Of a stretch of DNA of 64,000 nucleotides, positions 2,713-14,603 are shown piece after piece. The position numbers and the translations under genes were made by a program. Each line of letters begins with the position of its first letter. Position 1 is the first letter of the stretch. Location of the stretch: the NCBI RefSeq assembly GCF_030551255.1, contig NZ_CP130630.1:9423001-9487000 (forward strand). The letters are read 5' to 3'. The stretch is from Streptomyces sp. NL15-2K. Its GTDB lineage: Bacteria; Actinomycetota; Actinomycetes; Streptomycetales; Streptomycetaceae. The notes beneath the pieces were generated by a model. The model was not told where the DNA came from and searched no databases. It saw nothing but the letters and a program-made list of their open reading frames with translations.

Positions 2713-3687
2713 TCAGGTCATCGCGACGAGTATGCGGCGCTCGCCGGTGAAGGGCTCGCGGCCGTGTGCCATCCGCATATTGCTGACCAGCATGATGTCG
2801 CCCTGCCGCCAGGGCAGTGCGAGCGAGGCACGGTCGTAGGCGGCGCGGACCGCTGCCAGGTCGCCGTCGGGGATCGGACTGCCGTCGCCGAGCAGGGCGT
2901 TGCGGGGCAGGCCGTCCTCGCCGTACGTCTCCAGGAGCACGTCGCGCAGGTCCGGCTCCAGGCTGGACAGATGGAACAGGTGCGCCTGGTTGAACCACAC
3001 CTCGGCCTCCGTGCCCGGGTCGACGGCGGTGGCCGGGCGGTGGTGGCGGGTGTGCAGGACGTCACCGTCCCAGGAGAACTCCTGGCCGTGCGTGCGGCAG
3101 TGGCGTTCGACGTCGGCGCGGTCCTTGGTCTGGAACGCCTCTTGCCAGCTCAGCCCCATTTCGGCGCGGAATGTACGGGTGTAGACGACCCCCTTGGCGA
3201 ACCGCTCCCTGATCTCGGCCGGGATCAGGTCGAGGACGACGCGGCTGTCGGCGACCGGCGTGGCCCCGCCGGTGCCCGGCGCGGTGTGGCAGAAGAAGTA
3301 CACCGTGGACGGCCAACTGGACGCGTACGAGCTTTCGTTGTGCATCGGGATGGGCTGGTCGGCCGGGTACTCGGTCGAGGTGTAGATGTTCCCCTTGACC
3401 ACGCTGCGCGGGGTGGACCGCTCGGTGTAGCGCAGCAGGTCGCCGCCGACGGACCGGACGACATCGTGGAAGCCGTCGACGCCGTCGCCGTCGGCGGACA
3501 GGCCGTGCAGCAGGATCAGCCCGTCGGTGGCGAGGCGCTCACGCAGTTGCGGGCCGTGGGACCGCACCCAGTCGGGGCCCGCGTCGCCGAGCGCCCCCAG
3601 GTCGTACTCGGCGCCGGAGGTGAGCCCTTCGCCGCGGGGCCGGGGGGTGATCCCGCCGAGGGGGGTGAGCGTTACGGACCTGGTCAC
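2713..3687 (-). CDS. TauD/SyrP-type 2-oxoglutarate/Fe(II) oxygenase
   Basis: This is a predicted non-haem iron, 2-oxoglutarate dependent hydroxylase of 324 residues. The iron ligands read as H116-x-E118 (PMHNESSYAS) and H308 (MAHGREPF), with a 2-oxoglutarate-binding Arg in GERRILVAMT near residue 317. HxE instead of HxD, and the HNE-SY context, resemble SyrP-like enzymes that hydroxylate carrier-bound amino acids in NRPS pathways. The GTG start was chosen because it overlaps the upstream A-T gene stop in a GTGA junction; the longer open frame runs back into that gene. The target is probably the aminoacyl group on one of the carrier domains, but this is inference. Confidence 0.88.
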   Translation of the reverse strand: MTRSVTLTPLGGITPRPRGEGLTSGAEYDLGALGDAGPDWVRSHGPQLRERLATDGLILLHGLSADGDGVDGFHDVVRSVGGDLLRYTERSTPRSVVKGNIYTSTEYPADQPIPMHNESSYASSWPSTVYFFCHTAPGTGGATPVADSRVVLDLIPAEIRERFAKGVVYTRTFRAEMGLSWQEAFQTKDRADVERHCRTHGQEFSWDGDVLHTRHHRPATAVDPGTEAEVWFNQAHLFHLSSLEPDLRDVLLETYGEDGLPRNALLGDGSPIPDGDLAAVRAAYDRASLALPWRQGDIMLVSNMRMAHGREPFTGERRILVAMT

Positions 3688-5423
3688 TTGGGCGCTCCTT
3701 CGGCGGTGAACGGGGCGGCGTCCGGCTGAGCCGCGAGGATGCGGCGCACCGTGCGTTCGCGCAGGACGGTGGTGAGTTCGAGGTGGATCCCGGCCCTGCG
3801 GGCACCGGCGACCAGCTTCAGCGCGGTGATGCTGCTGCCGCCGGACGCCAGGAAGTCGGCGTCGGCACCGATCTCCGGGACACCCAGGGCCTGCGCCATC
3901 AGCTCGCACAGCAGGGTCTCGGCCAGGCTGCGGTCGCCCGACTCGTCGCCCTCAGCAGGGGGTTCGGGCAGCGCGGCCCGGTCGAGCTTTCCATTGGGAG
4001 TGAGCGGCAGTTCGGGTATGGCGACGAACGCCACCGGCACCATGTACGGCGGCAGCGCCTCGGCCGCGTGCCGCGCCAGCGCGGCGGCGTCGGGCGCGGA
4101 GCCAGGGCCCGGGGTCACGTAGGCGACGAGCCGCCGGGCATCTGCCGCGCCGACGGCGACGACCGCGCAGTCCCGCACGCCCGCATGGCCGCGGAGCACG
4201 GCCTCGATCTCACCGGGCTCGATCCGGTACCCGGAGACCTTCAGCTGCTCGTCCGCGCGCCCGAGGTACTCGAGGTTGCCGTCCTGGCGTTCGCGCACCA
4301 GGTCGCCGGTGCGGTACATCCGGGAGCCGTCGGCGGCGAACGAGTCCGGGACGAAGCGTTCGTCGGTCAGCTCCGCGCGCCCGAGGTAACCGCGCGCCAA
4401 CTGCCGGCCCGCGATGTGGAGTTCGCCCACAGCGCCCGCGGCGACCGGCTTGCCCTCCACGTCGAGCACGTACAGGCGCGTGCCCGCGAACGCCCGCCCG
4501 ATGGGGACGGCACCCGGGTCCACGGCGTCGCCGGGGCGGACGACGTACGCGCAGCAGCCGACGGTCGCCTCGGTGGGCCCGTACTCGTTGACGACCGTGA
4601 CGTCGGGGTGCGCGGTGCGCCAGTGCCCGAGCGCGGAGCCGGTCAGCGCCTCACCGCCGATCACGAGCTGCCTGGTGGGCAGGCAGGAGTCCGGGAGCAG
4701 GCTCAGCAGGGGCAGATGCGACGGGGTGACCTTGAGGAAGGTGGGGCGGGCCGTGGCGGCGGGCGGCGGCTGTTCGCCGGAGGCGATCGCCTTCAGGTCG
4801 AGGACGTGGATCGCGCCGCCGCTCACGAGCGGGCCCCACAGGCTGGTCACCGCCATGTCGAACGACACCGAGGAGTGCAGCACCGTCCGCCCGGCCAGCC
4901 CGTCGTAGCGCGCGCGGGCCTCCGCCAGGTAGGCGCCGAGCGCGCCGTGCTCGACCAGCACGCCTTTGGGCCGGCCGCTGGAGCCGGAGGTGTAGATCAC
5001 GTAGGCCGGATCACCGGCCCGCACCGGGGCCGCGTCGAACGGGCGGGCGGGCGCCGGCGCCTCGTCCGGGGTGAGGGTGCGCCCGTCGTCCGAGGGACGC
5101 TCGGCCAGCAGCAGCGCGGCGGCGCAGTCACCGAGGATGTGCCGGTCCCGGTCCTGCGGGTCGTCGTCGGCGAGCGGCACATAGCCCGCCCCCGTCAGCA
5201 CGACCGCGAGGAGCGCGGCGATCAGTTCGGGGCCGCGCGCCAGTCGCACCGCCACCAGCGTGCCCGGGCCCGCGCCGCGTGCGGCCAGCGTCCGGGCGAT
5301 ACGCCCGGCGCACAGCTCCAGTTCGCGGTACGTCCATACTCTGTCGCCGTGTACGACGGCGTCGGCGTCGGGGGTCCGGGTGGCCTGGTCGAGGAAGGCG
5401 TCCCGCAGGGCAAGGGGCATCAT
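3684..5423 (-). CDS. Free-standing NRPS A-T didomain protein, Asn-like code
   Basis: The protein activates an amino acid as its adenylate and loads it on its own carrier domain. It has 579 residues. Core motifs are A3 YVIYTSGSSGRPKG, A5 NEYGPTEATVG, A7 YRTGD, A8 GRADEQLKVSGYRIEPGE and A10 NGKLDR. The carrier motif is FLASGGSSITAL with the phosphopantetheine Ser near 531. Aligned by eye to GrsA, the ten specificity positions read D-M-T-K-V-G-E-V-G-K, one residue away from published Asn codes (DLTK[L/V]GEVGK). There is no C or TE domain, so it must work with the large synthetase in trans. Its ATG overlaps the thioesterase stop (ATGA) and its own stop overlaps the oxygenase GTG. A second ATG follows immediately and could be the true start. 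Confidence 0.92.
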   Translation of the reverse strand: MMPLALRDAFLDQATRTPDADAVVHGDRVWTYRELELCAGRIARTLAARGAGPGTLVAVRLARGPELIAALLAVVLTGAGYVPLADDDPQDRDRHILGDCAAALLLAERPSDDGRTLTPDEAPAPARPFDAAPVRAGDPAYVIYTSGSSGRPKGVLVEHGALGAYLAEARARYDGLAGRTVLHSSVSFDMAVTSLWGPLVSGGAIHVLDLKAIASGEQPPPAATARPTFLKVTPSHLPLLSLLPDSCLPTRQLVIGGEALTGSALGHWRTAHPDVTVVNEYGPTEATVGCCAYVVRPGDAVDPGAVPIGRAFAGTRLYVLDVEGKPVAAGAVGELHIAGRQLARGYLGRAELTDERFVPDSFAADGSRMYRTGDLVRERQDGNLEYLGRADEQLKVSGYRIEPGEIEAVLRGHAGVRDCAVVAVGAADARRLVAYVTPGPGSAPDAAALARHAAEALPPYMVPVAFVAIPELPLTPNGKLDRAALPEPPAEGDESGDRSLAETLLCELMAQALGVPEIGADADFLASGGSSITALKLVAGARRAGIHLELTTVLRERTVRRILAAQPDAAPFTAEGAPK

Positions 5424-6238
5424 CGGCTCGCCTCGTGTTCGCGAAGGAGGGCGGCCAGCGCGGCGGCGACCTGCGGGGAGTTCAGCAGATCGGCGCGGGC
5501 GACGTCGAAGCCGTGCTCGGTGTCGGTGAAGTCGGCGCCCCGGTGCTCCCGGGAGGTGAGCGAGGTGGCGGTGCGCCACTGCGGGGCGGGCGGCACGTCG
5601 AGCGCCGCTGTCAGATAGGCCAGGTAGGAGTGGAGAACGGTGGCCAGTTCGGCGCCGAGCGAGGCGTCCACGCCGAGCCGTTGGCACAGCAGGTCGCAGC
5701 CCTCGCGGTACAGGGCGGCGTACTGCTCGGCGACCGGGACCAGCGCGTTGGGGGCGTGTGCCTGCTGGATCGCGGTCATCTCGGCCAGCAGACCGGCGCG
5801 CTCCTCGTCCGTGAGGACATCCATGCCGTCGATCAGGCCGCGGAAGTCGCGGGTGAGCGTGGCGACGTCGGGTACGCCCGGGTTGAACAGCACGACCTGC
5901 GGCCGGTGGCCCTCCCGTTCGCCAAGGGTGTCGGCGAGGGCCGAGGCGAAGACGCTGCCCGCGCAGTAGCCGACGACGGCACGCACCGGCCGTCCCGCGA
6001 GGACTGTGCCGAGCCCCTCGGTCCACCGGTGCAGGTGGCCGGCGCCGGTGGCGGCGGACCAGTCGCCGTCCGGGGTGGGCGGGACCGCGTGCCAGACCTC
6101 GACCGGGTCGGGGAGCAGGTCGCACAGGTGGCGGAAGGTGGCCTCCTGGCGGCCCGTTCCGTAGAAGTCGACGGCGAGTACGACGCCGGGTGCGTTCCCT
6201 GTGCGGATGCGCGACCAGTTCGCCGCGTTCTCGGACAC
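5420..6238 (-). CDS. Stand-alone thioesterase-fold protein with Cys nucleophile
   Basis: This 272-residue alpha/beta hydrolase is of the NRPS thioesterase type. The nucleophile elbow reads V-V-G-Y-C-A-G-S with C92 where Ser is usual. A likely catalytic His lies near residue 242 (EHGFDVARADLL). Cys-type thioesterases are known in a few NRPS pathways, such as SulM of sulfazecin (beta-lactam closure) and ObiF of obafluorin (beta-lactone closure). There the Cys is linked to strained-ring formation. Neither large synthetase in this locus carries a TE domain, so this protein is the best candidate for product release. It lies between the MFS gene (7 bp gap) and the A-T gene (overlap). The GTG start is as given; function is inferred. 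Confidence 0.82.
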   Translation of the reverse strand: MSENAANWSRIRTGNAPGVVLAVDFYGTGRQEATFRHLCDLLPDPVEVWHAVPPTPDGDWSAATGAGHLHRWTEGLGTVLAGRPVRAVVGYCAGSVFASALADTLGEREGHRPQVVLFNPGVPDVATLTRDFRGLIDGMDVLTDEERAGLLAEMTAIQQAHAPNALVPVAEQYAALYREGCDLLCQRLGVDASLGAELATVLHSYLAYLTAALDVPPAPQWRTATSLTSREHRGADFTDTEHGFDVARADLLNSPQVAAALAALLREHEASR

Positions 6239-6245
6239 GATCGGT

Positions 6246-7535
6246 TCACTCCTCGGGTTCGGCTTTGACGGGTGCGGTGCGGTCGACGGGTTCCGCGGCG
6301 GCCGGCTCGCTGTTCCAGGTGTCGAGGACCAGGGTCCGGCGGCGCAGGACGGTCATGACGGCGATCGCGGCGGCCACGGCGAACGCGGCGGTGACGGTGA
6401 GGGCGGGGCCCTGGGAGTCGAGCAGCACACCGGCGGCGGCGCTGCCCGCGGCGAACCCTCCGTTGTTGGCCGTGGACACCCAGGTGTTGGCCTCGGTCGG
6501 GGCGATCCTCGACGCCGTCACCAGGTCGTTGACCAGCAGGTAGGCCGTGGTGAACAGCGGGGCGAGACACAGCCCTACGAGGAAGGCGAACGCCCCGGCC
6601 GGCACCGGGCTCTCGGTCAGGCACAGCGGCAGCACCGTCAGTGTGAACCCGGTGACGAGCACCGCGAACCGCTGCACCGGTGTCGAGCGCCAGCCGATCC
6701 GCCCGTAGGTGAGGCCGCCCACCGCGCTGCCCGCCGACAGCAGGGCCAGCAGGACGCCGCCCGCGCTGGGCGAGCCCGCGTCGTCGGCGATGAACGGCAG
6801 CACGACCTGCAGCACCCCGACGACCAGGCCGACCCCGCCGAAGGACAGCACGATCGTGCGCATCCCGGGCAGGGCCATGGGCCGGCCGTGCGGCTGGTCC
6901 TCGTCGGGTTCGTCCGAGGCGGGGGCAGCGGCCGTCGCGGCGGACAGCACGAAGCACACGGTGCCGGCCGCGATGAGCACCATGACCGTGATCATCGACG
7001 CGAGCGGCGCGGCGACCGCGATCAGACCGCCCGCCAGCAGCGGACCCACGGTGAACACCACTTCCTCGGTGACCGAGTCGAGGGCGTAGGCGGTGTGCAG
7101 CAGGGGCTGGCGGGCGTGCAGGATCTTCGCCCACAGGACGCGCATGGTCGGCCCGAGCGGCGGCGCGAACACGCCCGCGATCGCGGCGGCGACGAGCAGC
7201 GCCGCCGTGGGCGCCCCCGCTTCGGCCAGCGTGATCAGCGCGGCGAGCCCCAGCAGGTAGGGGACGGCCAGCCAGATCAGTCCGGTCCGTGAGCCCTTGC
7301 GGTCGATCAGCCGGGCGCGGGCGGGCGCGAACAGAGTGAGCGTGGCCGACAGCGCGCCGGAGGTGAGTCCCGCGACGGCGAAGGACCCCGTCGCGTCGCG
7401 GACCGACAGCAGCAGCGACAGCGGCAGCACGGCGAAGGACATGCGTGCCAGGCAGCTGCCGAGGAACGGCGAGCGGGCCTCGCGCACGGCCAGCACCGCG
7501 AGGTAGGTGGGTCTGGCGTCGACGTGCGTGGTCAC
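6246..7535 (-). CDS. MFS transporter, probable product exporter
   Basis: This is a 429-residue membrane protein with about 12 hydrophobic segments typical of the major facilitator superfamily. A loop rich in Asp/Glu/Pro near the middle (DEPDEDQPHGRP) separates the two halves. The GTG start at 7535 overlaps the type II thioesterase stop (GTGA), so translation is probably coupled. Its position inside a biosynthetic operon suggests export of, or self-resistance to, the peptide made here. Substrate cannot be told from sequence. Confidence 0.88.
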   Translation of the reverse strand: MTTHVDARPTYLAVLAVREARSPFLGSCLARMSFAVLPLSLLLSVRDATGSFAVAGLTSGALSATLTLFAPARARLIDRKGSRTGLIWLAVPYLLGLAALITLAEAGAPTAALLVAAAIAGVFAPPLGPTMRVLWAKILHARQPLLHTAYALDSVTEEVVFTVGPLLAGGLIAVAAPLASMITVMVLIAAGTVCFVLSAATAAAPASDEPDEDQPHGRPMALPGMRTIVLSFGGVGLVVGVLQVVLPFIADDAGSPSAGGVLLALLSAGSAVGGLTYGRIGWRSTPVQRFAVLVTGFTLTVLPLCLTESPVPAGAFAFLVGLCLAPLFTTAYLLVNDLVTASRIAPTEANTWVSTANNGGFAAGSAAAGVLLDSQGPALTVTAAFAVAAAIAVMTVLRRRTLVLDTWNSEPAAAEPVDRTAPVKAEPEE

Positions 7536-8278
7536 GCCACCACCTCGGCGAGGTTCGCGGCGACGCGGGCGAGGACGGCCGCGCGGTCGGTCTCCACGAA
7601 GTAGTGGCCGCCGGGCAGGACGACGACCTCGCAGTCCCGCGCGGTGCACGCGCGCCAGTCCAGGGTGGTCCGCCAGTCGGTCCCGTCGTCGTCGGCGCCG
7701 ATGTAGACCTTCAGCGGCAGGTCGAGCGCGCGGGGCCGAGGGCGGTGGTAGCGGTCACCGGCGACGATGTCGGCGACCAGGACGGGCAGCACCGCTTCCA
7801 TGAGTTCCTCGTCCAGCAGGGCGTCGTCCCACGGCCGTTCGTCCCGCAGGGTGGCGGCCAGCTCGGCCTCGGTCGCGGGACCGGAGCCGTCCGGCGGGAC
7901 GTGCGGGGGACGGCAGGCCGCGGCGATGAGCAGGCTCGGGGTGCGGCCCCGCGCCGCGAGCCGCGCCGCCAGTTCGTACCCCAGCAGGGCGCCCATACTG
8001 TGGCCGAGGACGACCGTGGGCAGGTTGCTGGGCGGCAGCGCCGCGCACAGCTGCTCGGCGGTCTCCTCCAGGGTGGCCAGGGGCGGTTCGGCGAACCGGT
8101 CGCCGCGGCCCGGCAGATGCGCGGTGAGCAGCTCCACTCCGGAGGGCAGCGCGGCGGGCCAGTCCTTGAAGACGGCCGCGGTGCCGCCCGCGTACGGCAG
8201 CGCGCACAGCCGCACCCGGGGCGGGCCGTCGCAGCCGCCGCTGTACCAGGGGTTGATGCGGATGAGCGGGAAGTCCAT
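7532..8278 (-). CDS. Type II thioesterase
   Basis: This 248-residue external editing thioesterase removes misprimed or stalled groups from NRPS carrier domains. It has the family N-terminus (LCALPYAGGTAAVF), the nucleophile elbow LGHSMGALLGYE with S94, and the C-terminal GGHYF motif with H225. All are conventional, in contrast to the Cys enzyme two genes downstream. It begins 12 bp after the oxygenase stop and overlaps the MFS start by four bases. Confidence 0.95.
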   Translation of the reverse strand: MDFPLIRINPWYSGGCDGPPRVRLCALPYAGGTAAVFKDWPAALPSGVELLTAHLPGRGDRFAEPPLATLEETAEQLCAALPPSNLPTVVLGHSMGALLGYELAARLAARGRTPSLLIAAACRPPHVPPDGSGPATEAELAATLRDERPWDDALLDEELMEAVLPVLVADIVAGDRYHRPRPRALDLPLKVYIGADDDGTDWRTTLDWRACTARDCEVVVLPGGHYFVETDRAAVLARVAANLAEVVA

Positions 8279-8290
8279 GGCGGCCGTCCC

Positions 8291-9304
8291 TCAGACCAGC
8301 AGCGAGGTGGCCGACTGCCGGGCGGACCGGGAGCGGCGCAGATCGCGGGTGATGTTGACGCGCTTGAGCCAGCGGTCGCGGCCGTCGTAGGCGGCGGCGA
8401 ACGGCTTGCGGCCGTGCACGGCCTGGTAGTTGTCGACGAGCAGCAGCGAGCCCGCGTCCAGGGCGACGTACTGCAGCCCGTCCTCGATGAGCGCGGCGAT
8501 GTTGTCGTACGCCCGCCGGGCGGCCGCGTCCCCGGGCGCCGGGCTCATGTAGGCCGGGTCGATCCGCAGATACGGGTCTTCGGGGTCGCCGAACAGGACG
8601 GCGACGCGCTCCGGGGTGTCGTCCATCTCGGCGATCGCCGCGAACCGTTCGGCCGACTGCGCGCCCGCCGCGTTCTGCTCGGGCGTGTGCGAGGTGTCGG
8701 GGCGGATCAGATAGCGCGGTTCGAGGAGCGTGGCCCGGTCCTCGGGGGTGAGCCGGGACAGGTCGGGCCAGCCCAGGGTGGTCACGGCACGCTGGTGGTT
8801 GCGCAGGCACAGCAGGCCCACGTAGTCGCAGCGCAGCTGGTGGAACGCGTCCTCGGTGTGCCACAGCAGCTCGGCCTTGCTGCTGGAGCCCATCTGCTCG
8901 GTCTCCTCGCCGGGGATGGGCAGCACGTCGTGGACGAGCCGGCCGTTCTGCTGGGTGGCCCAGCCGAAGGCCTCACCGAGCAGGGCCGCGTGCAGCAGGA
9001 GCAGCAGTTCCTGGTTTCGGGTCCGCTCGGGATCCGGGGTGGGGCGGGTCGCGGGGGTCGGTCCGATCCGGTCGTCGTCGATGCCGAAGCCTGTGACGAC
9101 GAGGGCGCGCGGGCTGTCGTAGAGCCGCATCCCGGTCAGCTCGGTGCGGATGCGCAGCGGCAGTTCCTGTGCGGCGAGCCGGGTGCGGTGCAGCAGCGCC
9201 ACGGTGGAGTCGACCGGTACATCGGCCAGGGTGCGCAACAGGTCGTCGACCTCAGTGTTCTCCTCATCGGTGAGTGTGATGGTGCGCAGCTGAAGGTCAG
9301 TCAT
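8291..9304 (-). CDS. AsnO/VioC-like 2-oxoglutarate amino acid hydroxylase
   Basis: This 337-residue member of the clavaminate synthase-like group hydroxylates free amino acids at the beta carbon; AsnO uses Asn and VioC uses Arg. Iron ligands are H149 and E151 (LLWHTEDAFHQLRCDY) and H297 (DNYQAVHGRKPF). The C-terminal block DRWLKRVNITRDLRRSR carries the 2-oxoglutarate Arg. The ATG at 9304 has a strong GAGGAG site about six bases upstream and overlaps the NRPS stop by eight bases; an ATG four codons earlier is less well placed. Substrate is open. The Asn-like code of the free-standing A domain favours Asn, while the basic-looking code of the second A domain would also fit Arg. Confidence 0.88.
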   Translation of the reverse strand: MTDLQLRTITLTDEENTEVDDLLRTLADVPVDSTVALLHRTRLAAQELPLRIRTELTGMRLYDSPRALVVTGFGIDDDRIGPTPATRPTPDPERTRNQELLLLLHAALLGEAFGWATQQNGRLVHDVLPIPGEETEQMGSSSKAELLWHTEDAFHQLRCDYVGLLCLRNHQRAVTTLGWPDLSRLTPEDRATLLEPRYLIRPDTSHTPEQNAAGAQSAERFAAIAEMDDTPERVAVLFGDPEDPYLRIDPAYMSPAPGDAAARRAYDNIAALIEDGLQYVALDAGSLLLVDNYQAVHGRKPFAAAYDGRDRWLKRVNITRDLRRSRSARQSATSLLV

Positions 9305-12300
9305 GGTTCTCCTCATCGAGGGCTGCCGCCAACGCGGCGACGGTCTGCTCGCTCAGCAACTGCCGGACGGTCAGCTGGACGCCGGCCCGACGGCACCGGG
9401 CGACGGCCCTGATGGCGAGGAGGGAGTCCCCGCCCAGGGTGAAGAAGTTGTCGTGCACGCCGACCTCGGGGAGGCCGAGCACCTGCGCCCACGCGTTGGC
9501 CAGGGTCTGTTCGAGGCCGGTACGGGGCGCGGTGGCGGCGCTGTCGCTCTGCCGGGCGGCGCGGCCTGCGGTGACGAGCCCGCCGAGTGCTCCCCGGTCG
9601 AGCTTGCCGGTGCCGGTGCGGGGCAGTGCGTCCACCTCGACGATCCGCGCGGGCAGCAGATGGGCGGGCAGTCGTTCGGCGAGCCAGGAACGCAGCCCGT
9701 CGGCGGCCGGGCCCTCTTCGGTCGTACGCCGATGCCGGGTCGGCGCGTTCGTCAGCCGGGCCGACGGTCCGGGCGCGGGGTGGGGGACGAGCAGCGGACG
9801 GTCGTCGCAGGCGCCCTGCCGGACCAGCAGGACGTCCATCGCGCCCCGCGGATCTGCGGCGGCCCAGCTGACGCTCACCCGGTAGGGGGTGGAGTCCTCC
9901 AGCGTCCACAGGTCCTCGGGGTCGACGGCCGTCGTGCGTACGGGCGCTTCGAGCAGCTCGTTGTCGCGGGTCAGGCGGTCGTTGGCGACGCCGCGCACGA
10001 GCAGGGCGTCCGGACCCCTGTGGTCCAGGCGGGCGGACAGCGACGCCAGGTCGTGCACCTGATCGCCCCAGGTGATCACCTCCGCCTCCGGGGCGGCCGG
10101 ACGGTCACCCACGTGCAGCACCACGTCGTAGCGGTACAGGCTCATCTCGTTGCGGTGCCGTCCCCGGCGGGGCAGGATCTCGACTCCGGTGACGCGGGGC
10201 GAGCGGGCGGCGAGCGCGGTGAAGTACTCGGGGGAGATCAGCAACTCGCTGTCCCGGGCAGCGAGTTCACCGGCAGCGCGAGCCACGTCCTGCGCCGAGG
10301 AGCCGGGATCGGCGTGCGCGAGGGCCTGGCGGGCGTAGAACTGCGGGGCGAGGGCGAGGTTGCGTACGTCTCCTACGAAGACGCGCCCCTGGTCGGCCGT
10401 GGCGTCGACGGCGCGGTCCAGGACGGCGTCGAGATAGTCGCGGTCGGGGAAGTACTGGACGACCGAGTTGATGACGACGAGGTCGGTGGACGCGGCGTCG
10501 ACGCCGGTGAAGTCGGTCGCCTCGCGGTGGTGCAGCCGCGCCTGGTGCGCGGGGCGGCGGCGCAGCCCTTCCCGGAGCCATTCCACGGCGGGCCGCGAGA
10601 AGTCGGTGCCGGTGTACTCGGCGACGTGCGGCAGCAGCCGCCACATGAGCAGCCCGGTGCCGCAGCCGATCTCCAGGACGCGCTTGGCCGGCCCGTCCAG
10701 GAGCCGGACGACGGTGGTGCCGACCCACTCCCGCATGTGCTCGGCGGGGATCGGCGCACCGGTGAGGCTGTCGTTCCAGCCCTTGATGTTGAAGGTGAGT
10801 TCGCCGTCGGCGGCGTCGATGTGGGTTGTCTCGAAGACGTCGTTCCAGTCCTCGACCTGGGCGCCCTGGCCGCCGTCGGCCGAACTGCCGTACGGGGCGC
10901 GGGAGCCGAGGGCGACGAGGGCGATCAGCCGGGCGGTGCCGTCGTCGGCGGCCACGGTGACGGCGGCTTCCTTGACGGTCGGGTGGTGGGTGAGGACGGT
11001 TTCGATCTCGCCGGGTTCGATGCGGAAGCCGCGGAGTTTGATCTGGTCGTCGGTGCGTCCGAGGTATTCGAGGGTGCCGTCGGGGCGCCGTCGGGCGCGG
11101 TCGCCGGTGCGGTAGAGGCGGCTGCCGGGGGTGTCGCTGTAGGGGTCGGCGATGAAGCGTTGCGCGGTGAGGGCGGGGCGGTTGACGTAGCCGCGGGCAA
11201 GTCCCGGGCCGCCGAGGTAGATCTCGCCGGCGACTCCGACGGGGACCGGCCGCAGCCGCTCGTCGAGGACGCGGAGGCGGACGTCGGGCAGCGGAGTGCC
11301 GATGACGGGGATGTCGACAGGGCCGGACAGATCGTGGCAGGTGGCGTCGACGGTCGCTTCAGTGGGGCCGTACAGGTTGAAGGCGCGAGTACGCCGCTGG
11401 CCGCGCAGCGCCTGCCACAGCGACGGCGAGACCGCCTCACCGCCCACCATGACCATGGACGGCGCCCACGCTCCCTCCAGCAGTCCGGCGGACGTGAGGA
11501 GTTCGAGCTGCGACGACGTCGTGTCGATGACGTCGATCCGGTGCTCCTTGACGAACCGGACCAGGGCCGAGGGGTCGCGGCGTACGTCCTCGGGCACGAT
11601 GAACAGCTCGTGACCGGCCAGCATCCAGCTCAGTTGCTCCATGGACGCGTCGAACGTGAAGGGCGCGGTGAGCGTCGCGCGCAGCTTCCTGTCCCCGGGC
11701 GGCACGCTGTCGGCCCCGGCGAGATACGGGTCGTGGCCGAGGAAGGTCGCCTGCAGGGTGCTGGTGAGGTGGTTCAGGGAGCGGTGCTGGACGGCGACAC
11801 CCTTCGGCGCGCCCGTCGAGCCGGACGTGTAGATGATGTAAGCGGCCTGGTCGGGGCGGATGTGCGGCGCGGTCACCGAGCCGTCGGCCGCGGGCTGCCG
11901 CGGGTCGAGATGGACGCGGCCGGGGCCTGCGGGCAGGTCGCGGGTGATGACGACGGGTGCCGCGGTGTCGTCCAGGACGTAGGCGGTGCGGTCGGCGGGC
12001 CACTCCGGGTCCAGGGGGACGTAGACGCCGCCCGCCCGCATCACAGCCAGCAGGGCGACAACGCTGTCAGTGGAGCGGGGCAGGCAGACCGCGACCGGCG
12101 TCTCGGGGGTGATCCCGAGGGCGAGCAACGTCCGTGCCAGCGACGCCACTTGAGCGTCCAGCTCGGCGAACGTGAGCGTGTCCTCGCCGCACGTCACCGC
12201 CCGCGCGTCCGGCGCCGCCCGCACCACCTCCGCGAACCGCTCCGGGACGCCGCCCGGTCCGGCGAGCGCCGCGTCCCGCTGCCCGAACTCACCAAGGAGC

Positions 12301-14603
12301 AGCCGCCGTTCAGCCTCGCCGGACAGCGGCAGATCGCCGATCGGGTGGCCTGGGTCCGCGGCAACGCCGCCGAGCAGCGTCAGATAGTGGGCGGCCAGCA
12401 CGTCCATGCGGGGCCGGTCGAACAGATCGGGGCAGTAGTTCAGGATCCCCCGGTACGATCCATCGTCGGCCCGCTTGATGTCCAAGGACAGGTCGAACTG
12501 CGAGACGGCCTCCCCGACCGGGTACCGCTCCACCTCCGCCCCGGGCAGGTCCGGCCGCGCCGCCGGCGTGTTCAGGAGCTGGAAGGTGATCTGGACGAGG
12601 GGGTTGTGGCTGAGGTCGCGCTCGGGTGCGAGTGTCTCGACCAGGGTCTCGAAGGGCAGGTCCTGATGGGCGAAGGCGCCGAGTGCGGCCTCACGCACCT
12701 GCTCCAGGAGGTCCCGGAAGGACAGACCGGGGGCGCAGGTCACGCGCAGGGGGAGCGTGTTGACGAAGAAGCCGACCAGGGGTTCCGTCTCGGTGCGGGT
12801 GCGCCCTGCCGACGGCACGCCGACCACGATGTCCTCGTGCCCGGCATGACGCGCCAGCAGTACCTGGAAGGCGCCGAGCAGTGTCATGAACAGGGTGACG
12901 CCCTGCTCCCGGCCCAGCTCCTCCAGCGCGGTGACCACAGCATCGGGCAGCGCGAACTCGACCGTCTCGCCCCGCCCGGACTGGACGGCGGGCCGCGGGT
13001 GGTCGGTGGGCAGCCGCAGCACCGAGGGCGCGCCGTCCAAAGCCCGCTTCCAGTACGCGAGTTGCTCCTCCTGTACCGGGCCGGTCATCCAGTCCCGCTG
13101 CCAGACGGCGAAGTCGGCGTACTGGACGTCCAGTGGAGGGAGTCCGGCGGGGTCGCCCGTGACGCACTCTCGGTACAGCCGGCCGAGTTCGTCCACCAGC
13201 ACACCCACGGACCAGGCGTCGGAGACGATGTGGTGCATGGTGACCACCAGCACATGCTCGTCGTCGGCCAGCTGGGCCACCACCACGCGCATCAGCGCGC
13301 CGTCCGCCAGGCGGAAGGGGGTCTGCGCCTCCGCCGCCACCAGCCTGCGCGCCGACTCCTCCCGCTCGGCGGGCTCCAGTGGTGTCAGGTCGACCCGCGT
13401 GAGGGCGGCCGCGCGCCGCGCGCCCGGCCTGTCGGCGGCATCAATGACCTGGTACGGCACACCGTCCCGCTCGACGAACGCCGTCCGCAGCGTCTCATGC
13501 CGAGCGACCAGCATCCGCAGCGCCCGCCGCAGCGCGTCCAGGTCGAGCCGTCCCCGTATGCGGAAGGCGTCGCACATCGTGTAGAAGGCACTGTCGGGCA
13601 CCAACTGGTCCAGGAACCACAGGCGTTGCTGCGCGAACGACAGCGGCAGCGGCCCGCCGCGCTCCACCGGCCGGAGCGCCGCCTCCTCGCGGCCGTCCTG
13701 GCCGCCGGCGTGTTCGGCCCGCACCCAGGCGGCCAGCTCCTCGACCGTCGGCGCGTCGAACAGGGCCCGCAGCGGCAGCTCGACACCGAGCAGCTTCCGC
13801 AGGCGCGCCACCACCTGGACTGCCAGCAGCGACTTGCCGCCCAGGTCGAAGAAGCGGTCCCGCACGCCGACCCGGTCGACGCCGAGCACGGCGCACCAGA
13901 CCTGCGCCACGACCTCCTCCACCACATCGCGTGGCGCCACAGAGGTGACCGGCCGGTGTATGACCTCATCGGCGTCCAGCACAAGACGATTGCCTGACAG
14001 GAGCGGCGCGATCAGGTGGAGAATCTCCGCCCCGACCGGAATCCCGATGCCCGGGTCGTCGATATAGCGCGCCAAATCGGCGTAGGAGACAACCGAATTA
14101 CCCGGCCTTCCATCAGGGGGTTCCGTATAAAGAATGTAGGCGATTCCCGGCACGCTCCGCGCGATGTGAATCGGCGGGACAACAGGGATTGTCGGCGGCT
14201 CGTCGTCCAGGAAACAGACAGGCCAGTCGCCGGTGAATTCTGGAGCGGCGGCACGGGTGGTGACGAGGACATCGGGGGCCGCGTCGGCGAGGATCTCGCG
14301 CTGCCGTCCGGCCGGAGCGCCAGGGTCCGCGGGAAGGCACGCGGCACCCAGTTTGAGCACCGCACACAGGGTGGCGACGAGGTCAGGATCGCGCGGCAGG
14401 ACCACCGTCACCAGCGTCGAGGGACCGGCGCCCGCGGCCGCCAGACGCGCGGCGATCGCCTCGGCCCGCCGATTCAGCTCCCCGTAACCGGTCACGGCCC
14501 CCTGATACAGAATCGCGCTCCGCTCCGGCGTGATCATGGAATGTCGTTCGAAGCTGTCTGCCGCTGCGTTTTTCCCTCCGAGTTCAGCGCCGTAATTCGT
14601 CAC
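9297..14603 (-). CDS. NRPS with collapsed A domain: (A*)-T-C-A-MT-T
   Basis: This 1768-residue synthetase opens the operon. Residues 15-205 start like an A domain (SFERHSMITPERSA, GYGELNRRAEAIAARL), but the A3 loop is degraded (YILYTEPPDGRPGN) and A4-A10 are absent. A carrier domain follows (FFDLGGKSLLAV, S258). Then come an LCL-like C domain (about 318-740; C3 MHHIVSDAWS) and a full A domain (about 775-1190 plus A10 near 1666) interrupted by a methyltransferase (VLEIGCGTG near 1307). A last carrier ends the protein (FFTLGGDSLLAI, S1727). The A code reads about D-A-E-D-M-G-L-V-D-K; acidic residues at 239 and 278 suggest a basic side chain. The insertion site is typical of N-methylation. The first carrier must be loaded in trans. 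The GTG start at 14603 has GGGGGA upstream and gives the usual A-domain N-terminus; no TE is present. Confidence 0.9.
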   Translation of the reverse strand: MTNYGAELGGKNAAADSFERHSMITPERSAILYQGAVTGYGELNRRAEAIAARLAAAGAGPSTLVTVVLPRDPDLVATLCAVLKLGAACLPADPGAPAGRQREILADAAPDVLVTTRAAAPEFTGDWPVCFLDDEPPTIPVVPPIHIARSVPGIAYILYTEPPDGRPGNSVVSYADLARYIDDPGIGIPVGAEILHLIAPLLSGNRLVLDADEVIHRPVTSVAPRDVVEEVVAQVWCAVLGVDRVGVRDRFFDLGGKSLLAVQVVARLRKLLGVELPLRALFDAPTVEELAAWVRAEHAGGQDGREEAALRPVERGGPLPLSFAQQRLWFLDQLVPDSAFYTMCDAFRIRGRLDLDALRRALRMLVARHETLRTAFVERDGVPYQVIDAADRPGARRAAALTRVDLTPLEPAEREESARRLVAAEAQTPFRLADGALMRVVVAQLADDEHVLVVTMHHIVSDAWSVGVLVDELGRLYRECVTGDPAGLPPLDVQYADFAVWQRDWMTGPVQEEQLAYWKRALDGAPSVLRLPTDHPRPAVQSGRGETVEFALPDAVVTALEELGREQGVTLFMTLLGAFQVLLARHAGHEDIVVGVPSAGRTRTETEPLVGFFVNTLPLRVTCAPGLSFRDLLEQVREAALGAFAHQDLPFETLVETLAPERDLSHNPLVQITFQLLNTPAARPDLPGAEVERYPVGEAVSQFDLSLDIKRADDGSYRGILNYCPDLFDRPRMDVLAAHYLTLLGGVAADPGHPIGDLPLSGEAERRLLLGEFGQRDAALAGPGGVPERFAEVVRAAPDARAVTCGEDTLTFAELDAQVASLARTLLALGITPETPVAVCLPRSTDSVVALLAVMRAGGVYVPLDPEWPADRTAYVLDDTAAPVVITRDLPAGPGRVHLDPRQPAADGSVTAPHIRPDQAAYIIYTSGSTGAPKGVAVQHRSLNHLTSTLQATFLGHDPYLAGADSVPPGDRKLRATLTAPFTFDASMEQLSWMLAGHELFIVPEDVRRDPSALVRFVKEHRIDVIDTTSSQLELLTSAGLLEGAWAPSMVMVGGEAVSPSLWQALRGQRRTRAFNLYGPTEATVDATCHDLSGPVDIPVIGTPLPDVRLRVLDERLRPVPVGVAGEIYLGGPGLARGYVNRPALTAQRFIADPYSDTPGSRLYRTGDRARRRPDGTLEYLGRTDDQIKLRGFRIEPGEIETVLTHHPTVKEAAVTVAADDGTARLIALVALGSRAPYGSSADGGQGAQVEDWNDVFETTHIDAADGELTFNIKGWNDSLTGAPIPAEHMREWVGTTVVRLLDGPAKRVLEIGCGTGLLMWRLLPHVAEYTGTDFSRPAVEWLREGLRRRPAHQARLHHREATDFTGVDAASTDLVVINSVVQYFPDRDYLDAVLDRAVDATADQGRVFVGDVRNLALAPQFYARQALAHADPGSSAQDVARAAGELAARDSELLISPEYFTALAARSPRVTGVEILPRRGRHRNEMSLYRYDVVLHVGDRPAAPEAEVITWGDQVHDLASLSARLDHRGPDALLVRGVANDRLTRDNELLEAPVRTTAVDPEDLWTLEDSTPYRVSVSWAAADPRGAMDVLLVRQGACDDRPLLVPHPAPGPSARLTNAPTRHRRTTEEGPAADGLRSWLAERLPAHLLPARIVEVDALPRTGTGKLDRGALGGLVTAGRAARQSDSAATAPRTGLEQTLANAWAQVLGLPEVGVHDNFFTLGGDSLLAIRAVARCRRAGVQLTVRQLLSEQTVAALAAALDEENHD

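What the first reader, a model, noticed from the sequence alone, without database searches (positions are those of the whole stretch)
5420..6238. Stand-alone Cys thioesterase in a locus with two hydroxylases
The elbow G-Y-C-A-G replaces Ser by Cys. Known Cys thioesterases SulM (beta-lactam) and ObiF (beta-lactone) close strained rings from beta-substituted amino acids, but as integrated domains. Here the only release candidate is a separate Cys enzyme, next to one or two amino acid hydroxylases that could supply a beta-hydroxyl. A trans-acting ring-forming thioesterase would be new to me.
Basis: partly seen in the sequence, partly recalled or inferred. Interest (0 to 1): 0.8.

Follow-up and report, generated by a model that had tools for sequence, protein, structure and literature searches.

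The report
Cysteine enzyme that shuttles amino acids
The gene probably makes a small cysteine enzyme that carries a pre-modified asparagine from one peptide-building protein to another, rather than closing a ring as first proposed; it belongs to a family known for ring closure that here seems to have lost that chemistry.

Summary
In detail: window 5420-6238, minus strand, encodes a 272-aa alpha/beta hydrolase with GYCAG (Cys92). The interpretation mostly fails. By sequence and predicted fold the protein belongs to the NcmC Dieckmann-cyclase family, not to SulM/ObiF, and it is not the only release candidate: a RifR-type Ser thioesterase lies at 7532-8278. In its clade (49 of 49 aligned rows) the cyclase's Asp and His are Asn and Arg. 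The gene overlaps a free-standing A-T didomain with an Asn-type code, which overlaps a TauD hydroxylase. 13 of 13 clusters of this clade carry that trio; in 10 of 10 with an at least partly visible assembly line there is also a carrier lacking a working A domain (8) or a free carrier (2). In two, an ObiF-like Cys TE ends the line. Best reading: a trans aminoacyl shuttle working like SyrC/CmaE/LgnA, moving (beta-hydroxy-)asparagine from the A-T carrier to the A-less carrier. The sister lineage includes a bripiodionen-type cyclase whose pathway lacks an identified shuttle (PMC10956176). No biochemistry was possible; one A-T+TauD locus without the Cys enzyme was found.

The parts
5420..6238 (-). 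Stand-alone Cys enzyme of the NcmC family, proposed trans aminoacyl shuttle (Cys92, Asn119 at the cyclase Asp position, Arg248 at the cyclase His position)
5963..5965 (-). codon of Cys92 (GYCAG)
5882..5884 (-). codon of Asn119 (FNPG), aligned with the NcmC catalytic Asp
5495..5497 (-). codon of Arg248 (VARADLL), aligned with the cyclase His
3684..5423 (-). Free-standing A-T didomain, Asn-type code DMTKVGEVGK, donor carrier with GGSS; its ATG overlaps the Cys gene stop by 4 nt (ATGA)
2713..3687 (-). TauD-type Fe/2OG hydroxylase (HNE ... AHGR); GTG start overlaps the A-T stop by 4 nt (GTGA)
9297..14603 (-). NRPS: truncated A - PCP - C - A(methyltransferase inserted) - PCP; start codon uncertain (14537, 14603 or 14678)
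14037..14558 (-). A-domain remnant (profile 3-181 of 499), no working A domain
13722..13919 (-). Proposed acceptor carrier (PCP1, GGKS) without its own A domain
7532..8278 (-). Ser type II thioesterase (GHSMG), RifR-like; overlooked release/editing candidate
8291..9316 (-). VioC/GntD-type Fe/2OG hydroxylase (427.9 bits against the NCBIfam GntD cut-off 345)
6246..7535 (-). MFS exporter

Best explanation
The Cys enzyme is a trans-acting aminoacyl shuttle. The free-standing A-T didomain (3684-5423) activates L-Asn and holds it as a thioester; the TauD enzyme (2713-3687) probably beta-hydroxylates it, bound or free. Cys92 takes the aminoacyl group off the A-T carrier and hands it to the carrier at the start of the NRPS (13722-13919), whose own A domain is only a remnant; the C domain then joins it to the next residue. 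Loss of the Asp/His general base would let the enzyme exchange thioesters without hydrolysing or cyclising them. Shown here: family, conserved active-site replacement, gene overlap, Asn-type code, A-less acceptors across clusters. Inferred: direction and identity of the transferred group, timing of hydroxylation, role of Arg248.
For: Cys enzyme + A-T directly downstream + TauD in the same cluster in 13 of 13 clusters of the clade (TauD directly after A-T in 11, on the other strand about 12 kb away in G396 and G398). In the window the three genes overlap by 4 nt each. Code D(M/L)TK(V/I)GEVGK in 13 of 13 A-Ts. In 10 of 10 clusters whose line is at least partly visible: a carrier without a working A domain (8) or a free-standing carrier just upstream of the Cys gene (G397, G960); 3 more are cut by contig ends. 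Controls: 0 of 17 Asp/His-type loci with an NRPS have a C-PCP without A, but 4 of the 17 have a weak free-carrier hit. Fisher p: 9e-7 for 8/8 v 0/17, 1.5e-4 for 10/10 v 4/17 with free carriers counted on both sides, 0.012 with both sides collapsed to lineages, free carriers counted only in the clade. Donor carriers read GG[ST]S in 13 of 13 and acceptors keep the Ser. Cys92 is kept but no His is conserved in the clade. A second His-less sub-clade (Cys-Asp-Thr) also sits with A-T and an A-less C-PCP, 3 of 3 genomes, with a different code. Precedents: SyrC, CmaE, LgnA (PMC8748450, passages).
Against: No biochemistry. A-less carriers also occur in 3 of 7 other NRPS regions of the same genome (6 of 77 carriers). 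One genome (G114) has an Asn-type A-T + TauD with a Ser TEII on the other strand and no Cys homologue found (contig ends 4 kb upstream), so the Cys enzyme is not always needed. Window-type clusters also hold a Ser TEII that could be the shuttle (LgnA precedent). 6 of 48 Asp/His-type loci also have an A domain directly downstream, so pairing with A-T is not peculiar to the His-less clade. PKS genes are not absent from the clade: G401 has a KS-AT-ACP protein right after its A-less NRPS and G051 a PKS with its own TE right after TauD, so a cyclase role is not excluded everywhere. In G397 and G960 the acceptor is only inferred from a free PCP beside the gene.
Confidence: 0.72

Rival explanations
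1. Ring-forming release enzyme: the Cys enzyme takes the finished peptide and closes a beta-lactone, beta-lactam or tetramate-like ring in trans.
For: NcmC-family members close tetramate rings in trans (PMC10956176, sections 7 and 9); Cys nucleophile; beta-hydroxyl available; no TE domain at the end of the window NRPS; PKS genes in or beside the G401 and G051 clusters.
Against: The Asp and His whose mutation abolished product formation in the relative BpdE (D116A, H245N) are naturally Asn and Arg in 49 of 49 clade rows. No PKS domain in the window's NRPS cluster; the PKS left of the window is on the other strand, ends in its own hydrolase and has no KS-motif counterpart in L003-L006. G396 and G398 keep the Cys enzyme although the line ends in an ObiF-like Cys TE.
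Confidence: 0.1
2. Hydrolase: it releases the tailored amino acid from the A-T as a free beta-hydroxy amino acid (the NikP2/Bhp kind of step, recalled).
For: A-T + oxygenase + thioesterase is a known way to make free beta-hydroxy amino acids (recalled).
Against: Free beta-OH-Asn would need an A domain to re-enter, but the acceptor modules lack one, and the other A codes read in the clusters are not Asn-type, apart from one Asp-type code in G399. Cys in place of Ser and no conserved His disfavour hydrolysis.
Confidence: 0.07
3. The A-T loads the A-less carrier directly, or the Ser TEII (7532-8278) is the shuttle, and the Cys enzyme edits or is a scaffold.
For: trans A-domain loading is reported for capreomycin CmnI (PMC12400406, abstract in listing only); LgnA is a Ser TEII shuttle; G114 pairs A-T + TauD with a TEII and no Cys enzyme found.
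Against: A stand-alone Ser TEII was found in only 6 of the 12 regions and not in G960, some regions being cut; the Cys enzyme is in all because the set was chosen by it. The A-T carrier is kept; in the bripiodionen system both carriers are needed and deleting the TEII had no effect.
Confidence: 0.1

Closest known systems
TrdC/NcmC-type stand-alone Dieckmann cyclases (NcmC, PDB 6e6t/6e6u/6e6y; BpdE)
   Different: Asn119 and Arg248 replace the catalytic Asp and His; no PKS in the window's cluster; beside an A-T didomain and with a TauD hydroxylase in all 13 clusters seen
SyrC / CmaE aminoacyltransferases (PMC8748450 passages)
   Same: Expected job: move an amino acid between carrier proteins of different NRPS subunits; stand-alone A-T donor and, as recalled, a non-heme iron enzyme
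   Different: No sequence comparison was made (sequences not fetched); this protein is in the NcmC family
LgnA and WS9326A-type Ser TEII shuttles
   Same: Carrier-to-carrier aminoacyl transfer from an A-T to an A-less module
   Different: LgnA has a canonical Ser-Asp-His triad and is a TEII; here Cys-Asn-Arg and the NcmC fold
SulM and ObiF Cys TE domains
   Same: alpha/beta hydrolase with Cys nucleophile; beta-hydroxy or beta-amino residue in the pathway
   Different: Integrated domains with Asp after strand 7 and a His (PMC11298585 passages); not the sequence neighbours of this protein

Membership tests
NcmC/TrdC Dieckmann cyclase family (as sequence/fold family) | full-length sequence and fold similarity to NcmC | tested here: met
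NcmC/TrdC Dieckmann cyclase family (as sequence/fold family) | catalytic Cys in the elbow | tested here: met
   Cys92; Cys in 110 of 110 family rows
Dieckmann cyclase (function) | catalytic Asp after strand 6 and catalytic His (Cys-Asp-His triad) | tested here: not met
   Asn119 and Arg248; 49 of 49 clade rows have Asn/Arg
Dieckmann cyclase (function) | PKS-NRPS line giving a beta-ketoacyl-aminoacyl substrate | tested here: not met
   No PKS domain in the window's NRPS cluster; neighbouring PKS left of the window is on the opposite strand with its own terminal hydrolase. In relatives G401 and G051 PKS genes do lie in or beside the cluster
Dieckmann cyclase (function) | tetramate formation | not testable with these tools
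   needs enzyme assay
SulM/ObiF ring-forming Cys TE | sequence kinship | tested here: not met
   no SulM/ObiF hit at E<=10, whereas the cis TEs of G398 and G396 hit ObiF1 at 2e-28 and 4e-28
SulM/ObiF ring-forming Cys TE | catalytic His with Asp after strand 7 | tested here: not met
   no His conserved at 90% or more in the clade; feature as given in PMC11298585
Trans aminoacyl shuttle (SyrC/CmaE/LgnA kind, by function) | free-standing A-T donor plus A-less acceptor carrier in the same cluster | tested here: met
   13 of 13 A-T; 8 A-less and 2 free carriers in the 10 visible lines
Trans aminoacyl shuttle (SyrC/CmaE/LgnA kind, by function) | covalent aminoacyl-enzyme and transfer between carriers | not testable with these tools
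   needs intact-protein mass spectrometry
SyrC/CmaE family (by descent) | sequence homology to SyrC/CmaE | not tested
   their sequences were not fetched
Type II thioesterase (PF00975) | Pfam PF00975 match | tested here: not met
   no Pfam family at E<=0.2; precomputed PF00975 in 1 of 47 homologues (P0025)

The most novel reading that the evidence does not exclude
A whole super-clade of the Dieckmann-cyclase family are carrier-to-carrier aminoacyl transferases. Transthiolation from a free A-T to an A-dead module is the shared job; the bripiodionen-type cyclase (BpdE-like, Cys-Asp-His) does both transfer and ring closure and is the missing shuttle of that pathway, while the lineages that lost the His (Cys-Asn-Arg with TauD; Cys-Asp-Thr without it) became dedicated shuttles by shedding the general base.
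Probability: 0.35. Interest if true: 0.75.

Novelty: new variant of a known kind. Interest (0 to 1): 0.6.

Why it matters
Shuttle enzymes that feed pre-modified amino acids into peptide assembly lines are known from only a few families. A shuttle evolved from a ring-closing cyclase by losing its Asp and His would be a new origin of the activity and a clean case of function change through loss of catalytic residues. It offers a testable candidate for the unidentified transthiolation step in bripiodionen biosynthesis (PMC10956176), a marker for finding clusters that insert trans-loaded (beta-hydroxy-)asparagine, including two that end in ObiF-like, possibly beta-lactone-forming, domains, and a part that could load chosen residues onto A-less modules.

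Tried and rejected
SulM/ObiF kinship: rejected on sequence and fold. Tetramate/Dieckmann function for the window protein: not supported (triad, no PKS in its cluster). The PKS left of the window as a partner: thought unlikely, since L003-L006 show no KS motif within their 15.7-20.8 kb and G051 has a different PKS with its own TE, directly after TauD.

Of the lower hits I read the short flanks of 26; 5 had a strong A domain in the flank and 4 of these were read wider (L178 was not): 3 are Asp-type cis modules, 1 (G114) is an Asn-type A-T + TauD without the Cys enzyme, a result against necessity.

Spread: at E<=1e-20, 2 of 396 phylum genomes and 51 of 394 family genomes had hits, mostly the Asp/His type; among the 31 loci read, 4 were Asn/Arg. 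The clade looks rare. Foldseek 'pdb' was never accepted; the VIA second look was used. Literature: searches listed no paper whose title or start of abstract describes an NcmC-family aminoacyl shuttle (open-access PMC only). Papers: PMC10956176 sections 7 and 9 and passages; PMC8748450, PMC8552735, PMC9229766, PMC10609185, PMC11298585 passages only; all others listing only.

Recalled, from no call: Stachelhaus positions and reference codes (Asn DLTKLGEVGK, Asp DLTKVGHIGK); HxE as hydroxylase rather than halogenase; NikP2/Bhp. Module counts were made by eye from its printout and typed into; free carriers in the controls were scored only later.

Full report
OBSERVATION. The ORF 5420-6238 is real, on the minus strand, 272 aa, with GYCAG and Cys92. 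It reaches no Pfam match at E<=0.2 and no NCBIfam match at E<=0.01. The large protein search returned 47 homologues at E<=0.001, 10 of them at 67-94% identity, several named Streptomyces.

ACTIVE SITE. NcmC-type enzymes use Cys-Asp-His; in the relative BpdE, C89A, C89S, D116A, H245N and Y204F all failed to restore the product in vivo (PMC10956176, section 7 read). In an alignment of 110 family rows every row keeps the Cys. 49 rows have Asn at the Asp column and all 49 have Arg at the His column (the window's gene is there twice and there are near-copies; 48 different rows entered the tree). The other 61 rows have Asp or Glu, and 57 of these have His. No His reaches 90% conservation in the Asn/Arg clade. 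The clade is one branch with support 100/96. Its sister group holds a second His-less type (Cys-Asp-Thr) and L035 (Cys-Asp-His).

GENE CONTEXT. In the window the order on the minus strand is NRPS (A remnant - PCP - C - A with inserted methyltransferase - PCP), VioC/GntD-type hydroxylase, Ser TEII, MFS, Cys enzyme, A-T didomain, TauD. The last three genes overlap by ATGA and GTGA, a sign of translational coupling. I compared 13 clusters of the clade: the window's, G392-G401 and G051, and G960. 13 of 13 have the A-T directly downstream of the Cys gene and a TauD in the cluster; in 11 the TauD follows the A-T, in G396 and G398 it is on the other strand about 12 kb off. The A-T code is D(M/L)TK(V/I)GEVGK in 13 of 13, the Asn type by recalled reference codes; the bripiodionen authors likewise read an Asn code in BpdD, which has the same role. 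TauD keeps HNE...AHGR in 13 of 13, fitting a hydroxylase.

A-LESS ACCEPTORS. 10 of the 13 clusters show their assembly line at least in part. Eight have a carrier that lacks a working A domain: a truncated A then PCP at the NRPS start (window, G395, G051); a terminal C-PCP-TE (G396, G398); C - broken A - PCP (G399); C - PCP (G400, G401). Two (G397, G960) have a free PCP directly upstream of the Cys gene, the weakest cases. Six (G398, G396, G401, G051, G399, G400) were rechecked with Pfam. The other three clusters are cut by contig ends. Controls: 17 Asp/His-type loci with a visible NRPS (of 20, L013-L032) show 23 modules, none A-less, but 4 of the 17 have a weak, 94-96 aa free-carrier hit and others have carriers in PKS or cut ORFs. 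In seven NRPS regions of the window's own genome 71 carriers have an A domain and 6 have none, spread over 3 of 7 regions. Fisher tests: 9e-7 for 8/8 against 0/17; 1.5e-4 for 10/10 against 4/17 with free carriers counted on both sides; 0.012 with both sides collapsed to lineages and 0.015 against the 3 of 7 regions, free carriers counted only in the clade. The samples are related, so these are guides only.

A NATURAL CONTRAST. In G396 and G398 the line ends C-(no A)-PCP-TE with GQCGG and GHCGG; both TEs are closest to ObiF1 (E 4e-28 and 2e-28). A beta-OH-Asn delivered to that last carrier would be well placed for beta-lactone closure by the cis TE.

A SECOND CASE. G956, G1063 and G1021 carry the Cys-Asp-Thr type beside an A-T with another code (DVRHVGVVDK) and an A-less C-PCP protein in 3 of 3. 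In G956, the only one whose other genes were identified, two P450 genes lie in the region, one of them about one gene upstream of the Cys gene. So the pairing of a His-less member with an A-T and an A-less carrier is not tied to Asn or to TauD.

LINK TO BRIPIODIONEN. L035/G368 lies in the sister group and keeps Cys-Asp-His. Its neighbours are a TEII, an Asn-code A-T, a 901-aa C-(dead A, Pro at the key Asp)-PCP and a PKS, closely matching bpdE-bpdD-bpdC (BpdC 900 aa, D552P). That paper showed that both carriers are needed, found no SyrC homologue, and saw no effect of deleting the TEII; the authors suggested that the A-T itself does the transfer. The tree offers another answer: the cyclase homologue may do it. 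This is my inference.

MECHANISM. Most likely A-T loads Asn, TauD hydroxylates it, Cys92 picks it up and hands it to PCP1. Without the Asp/His base the acyl-enzyme should resist water and be resolved by the next carrier's thiol; Arg248 may help the thiolate or bind the phosphopantetheine. Steps shown by sequence: presence and overlap of parts, code, lost A domain, lost triad. Steps inferred: everything chemical.

AGAINST. A-less carriers occur elsewhere; a Ser TEII in window-type clusters could be the shuttle, as LgnA is; G114 has an A-T + TauD with no Cys homologue found; 6 of 48 Asp/His loci also sit next to an A domain; G401 has a KS-AT-ACP protein after its A-less NRPS and G051 a PKS with its own TE after TauD, so the absence of a PKS holds for the window's cluster, not for the whole clade. 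I put the shuttle reading at 0.72.

PRODUCT. The remaining A code (DAEDMGLVDS) has acidic pocket residues and the VioC/GntD models describe hydroxylases of basic amino acids, so an N-methylated basic residue after (beta-hydroxy-)Asn is a fair guess for the dipeptide core (inference). Release would fall to the Ser TE or to an enzyme not recognised here.

Noticed in passing
window 9318-13649: The window NRPS module looks like a fusion: its first about 840 residues match module 2 of G395 (80-95%) and the rest matches module 3 (81-96%), as if one module was lost by recombination inside the A domain.
   Followed up: partly
L068:17227-18066 (G398) and L064:2629-3492 (G396): NRPS lines ending in an A-less module with an ObiF1-like Cys TE (E 2e-28 and 4e-28) and a trans cassette for Asn + TauD: candidate beta-lactone clusters.
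   Followed up: partly
left of the window, L080:691-11525: Type I PKS genes (KS, AT, DH, ACP domains and a terminal alpha/beta hydrolase) on the opposite strand, next to the LuxR-type regulator 98-2350.
   Followed up: partly
L075:6858-10409 (G401): KS-AT-ACP protein with a luciferase-like monooxygenase domain directly after the A-less C-PCP-C-PCP protein of this clade's cluster.
   Followed up: no
G000:C1 about 9945-9970 kb (L086-L087): Another NRPS region with a free A-PCP gene followed by an NRPS that begins with a lone PCP and later has a C-PCP without A: a second likely trans-loading system in the same genome.
   Followed up: no
A-T donor carriers of the clade: Donor carriers carry GG[ST]S in 13 of 13; proposed acceptors read GGKS, GGNS, GGDS, GGQS or GGHS (a second G401 carrier reads GGTS); possible recognition mark.
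   Followed up: partly
window 8291-9316: VioC-like protein scores above the NCBIfam cut-off for the enduracididine beta-hydroxylase GntD (427.9 against 345) and below that for VioC (360.7 against 418.6).
   Followed up: no
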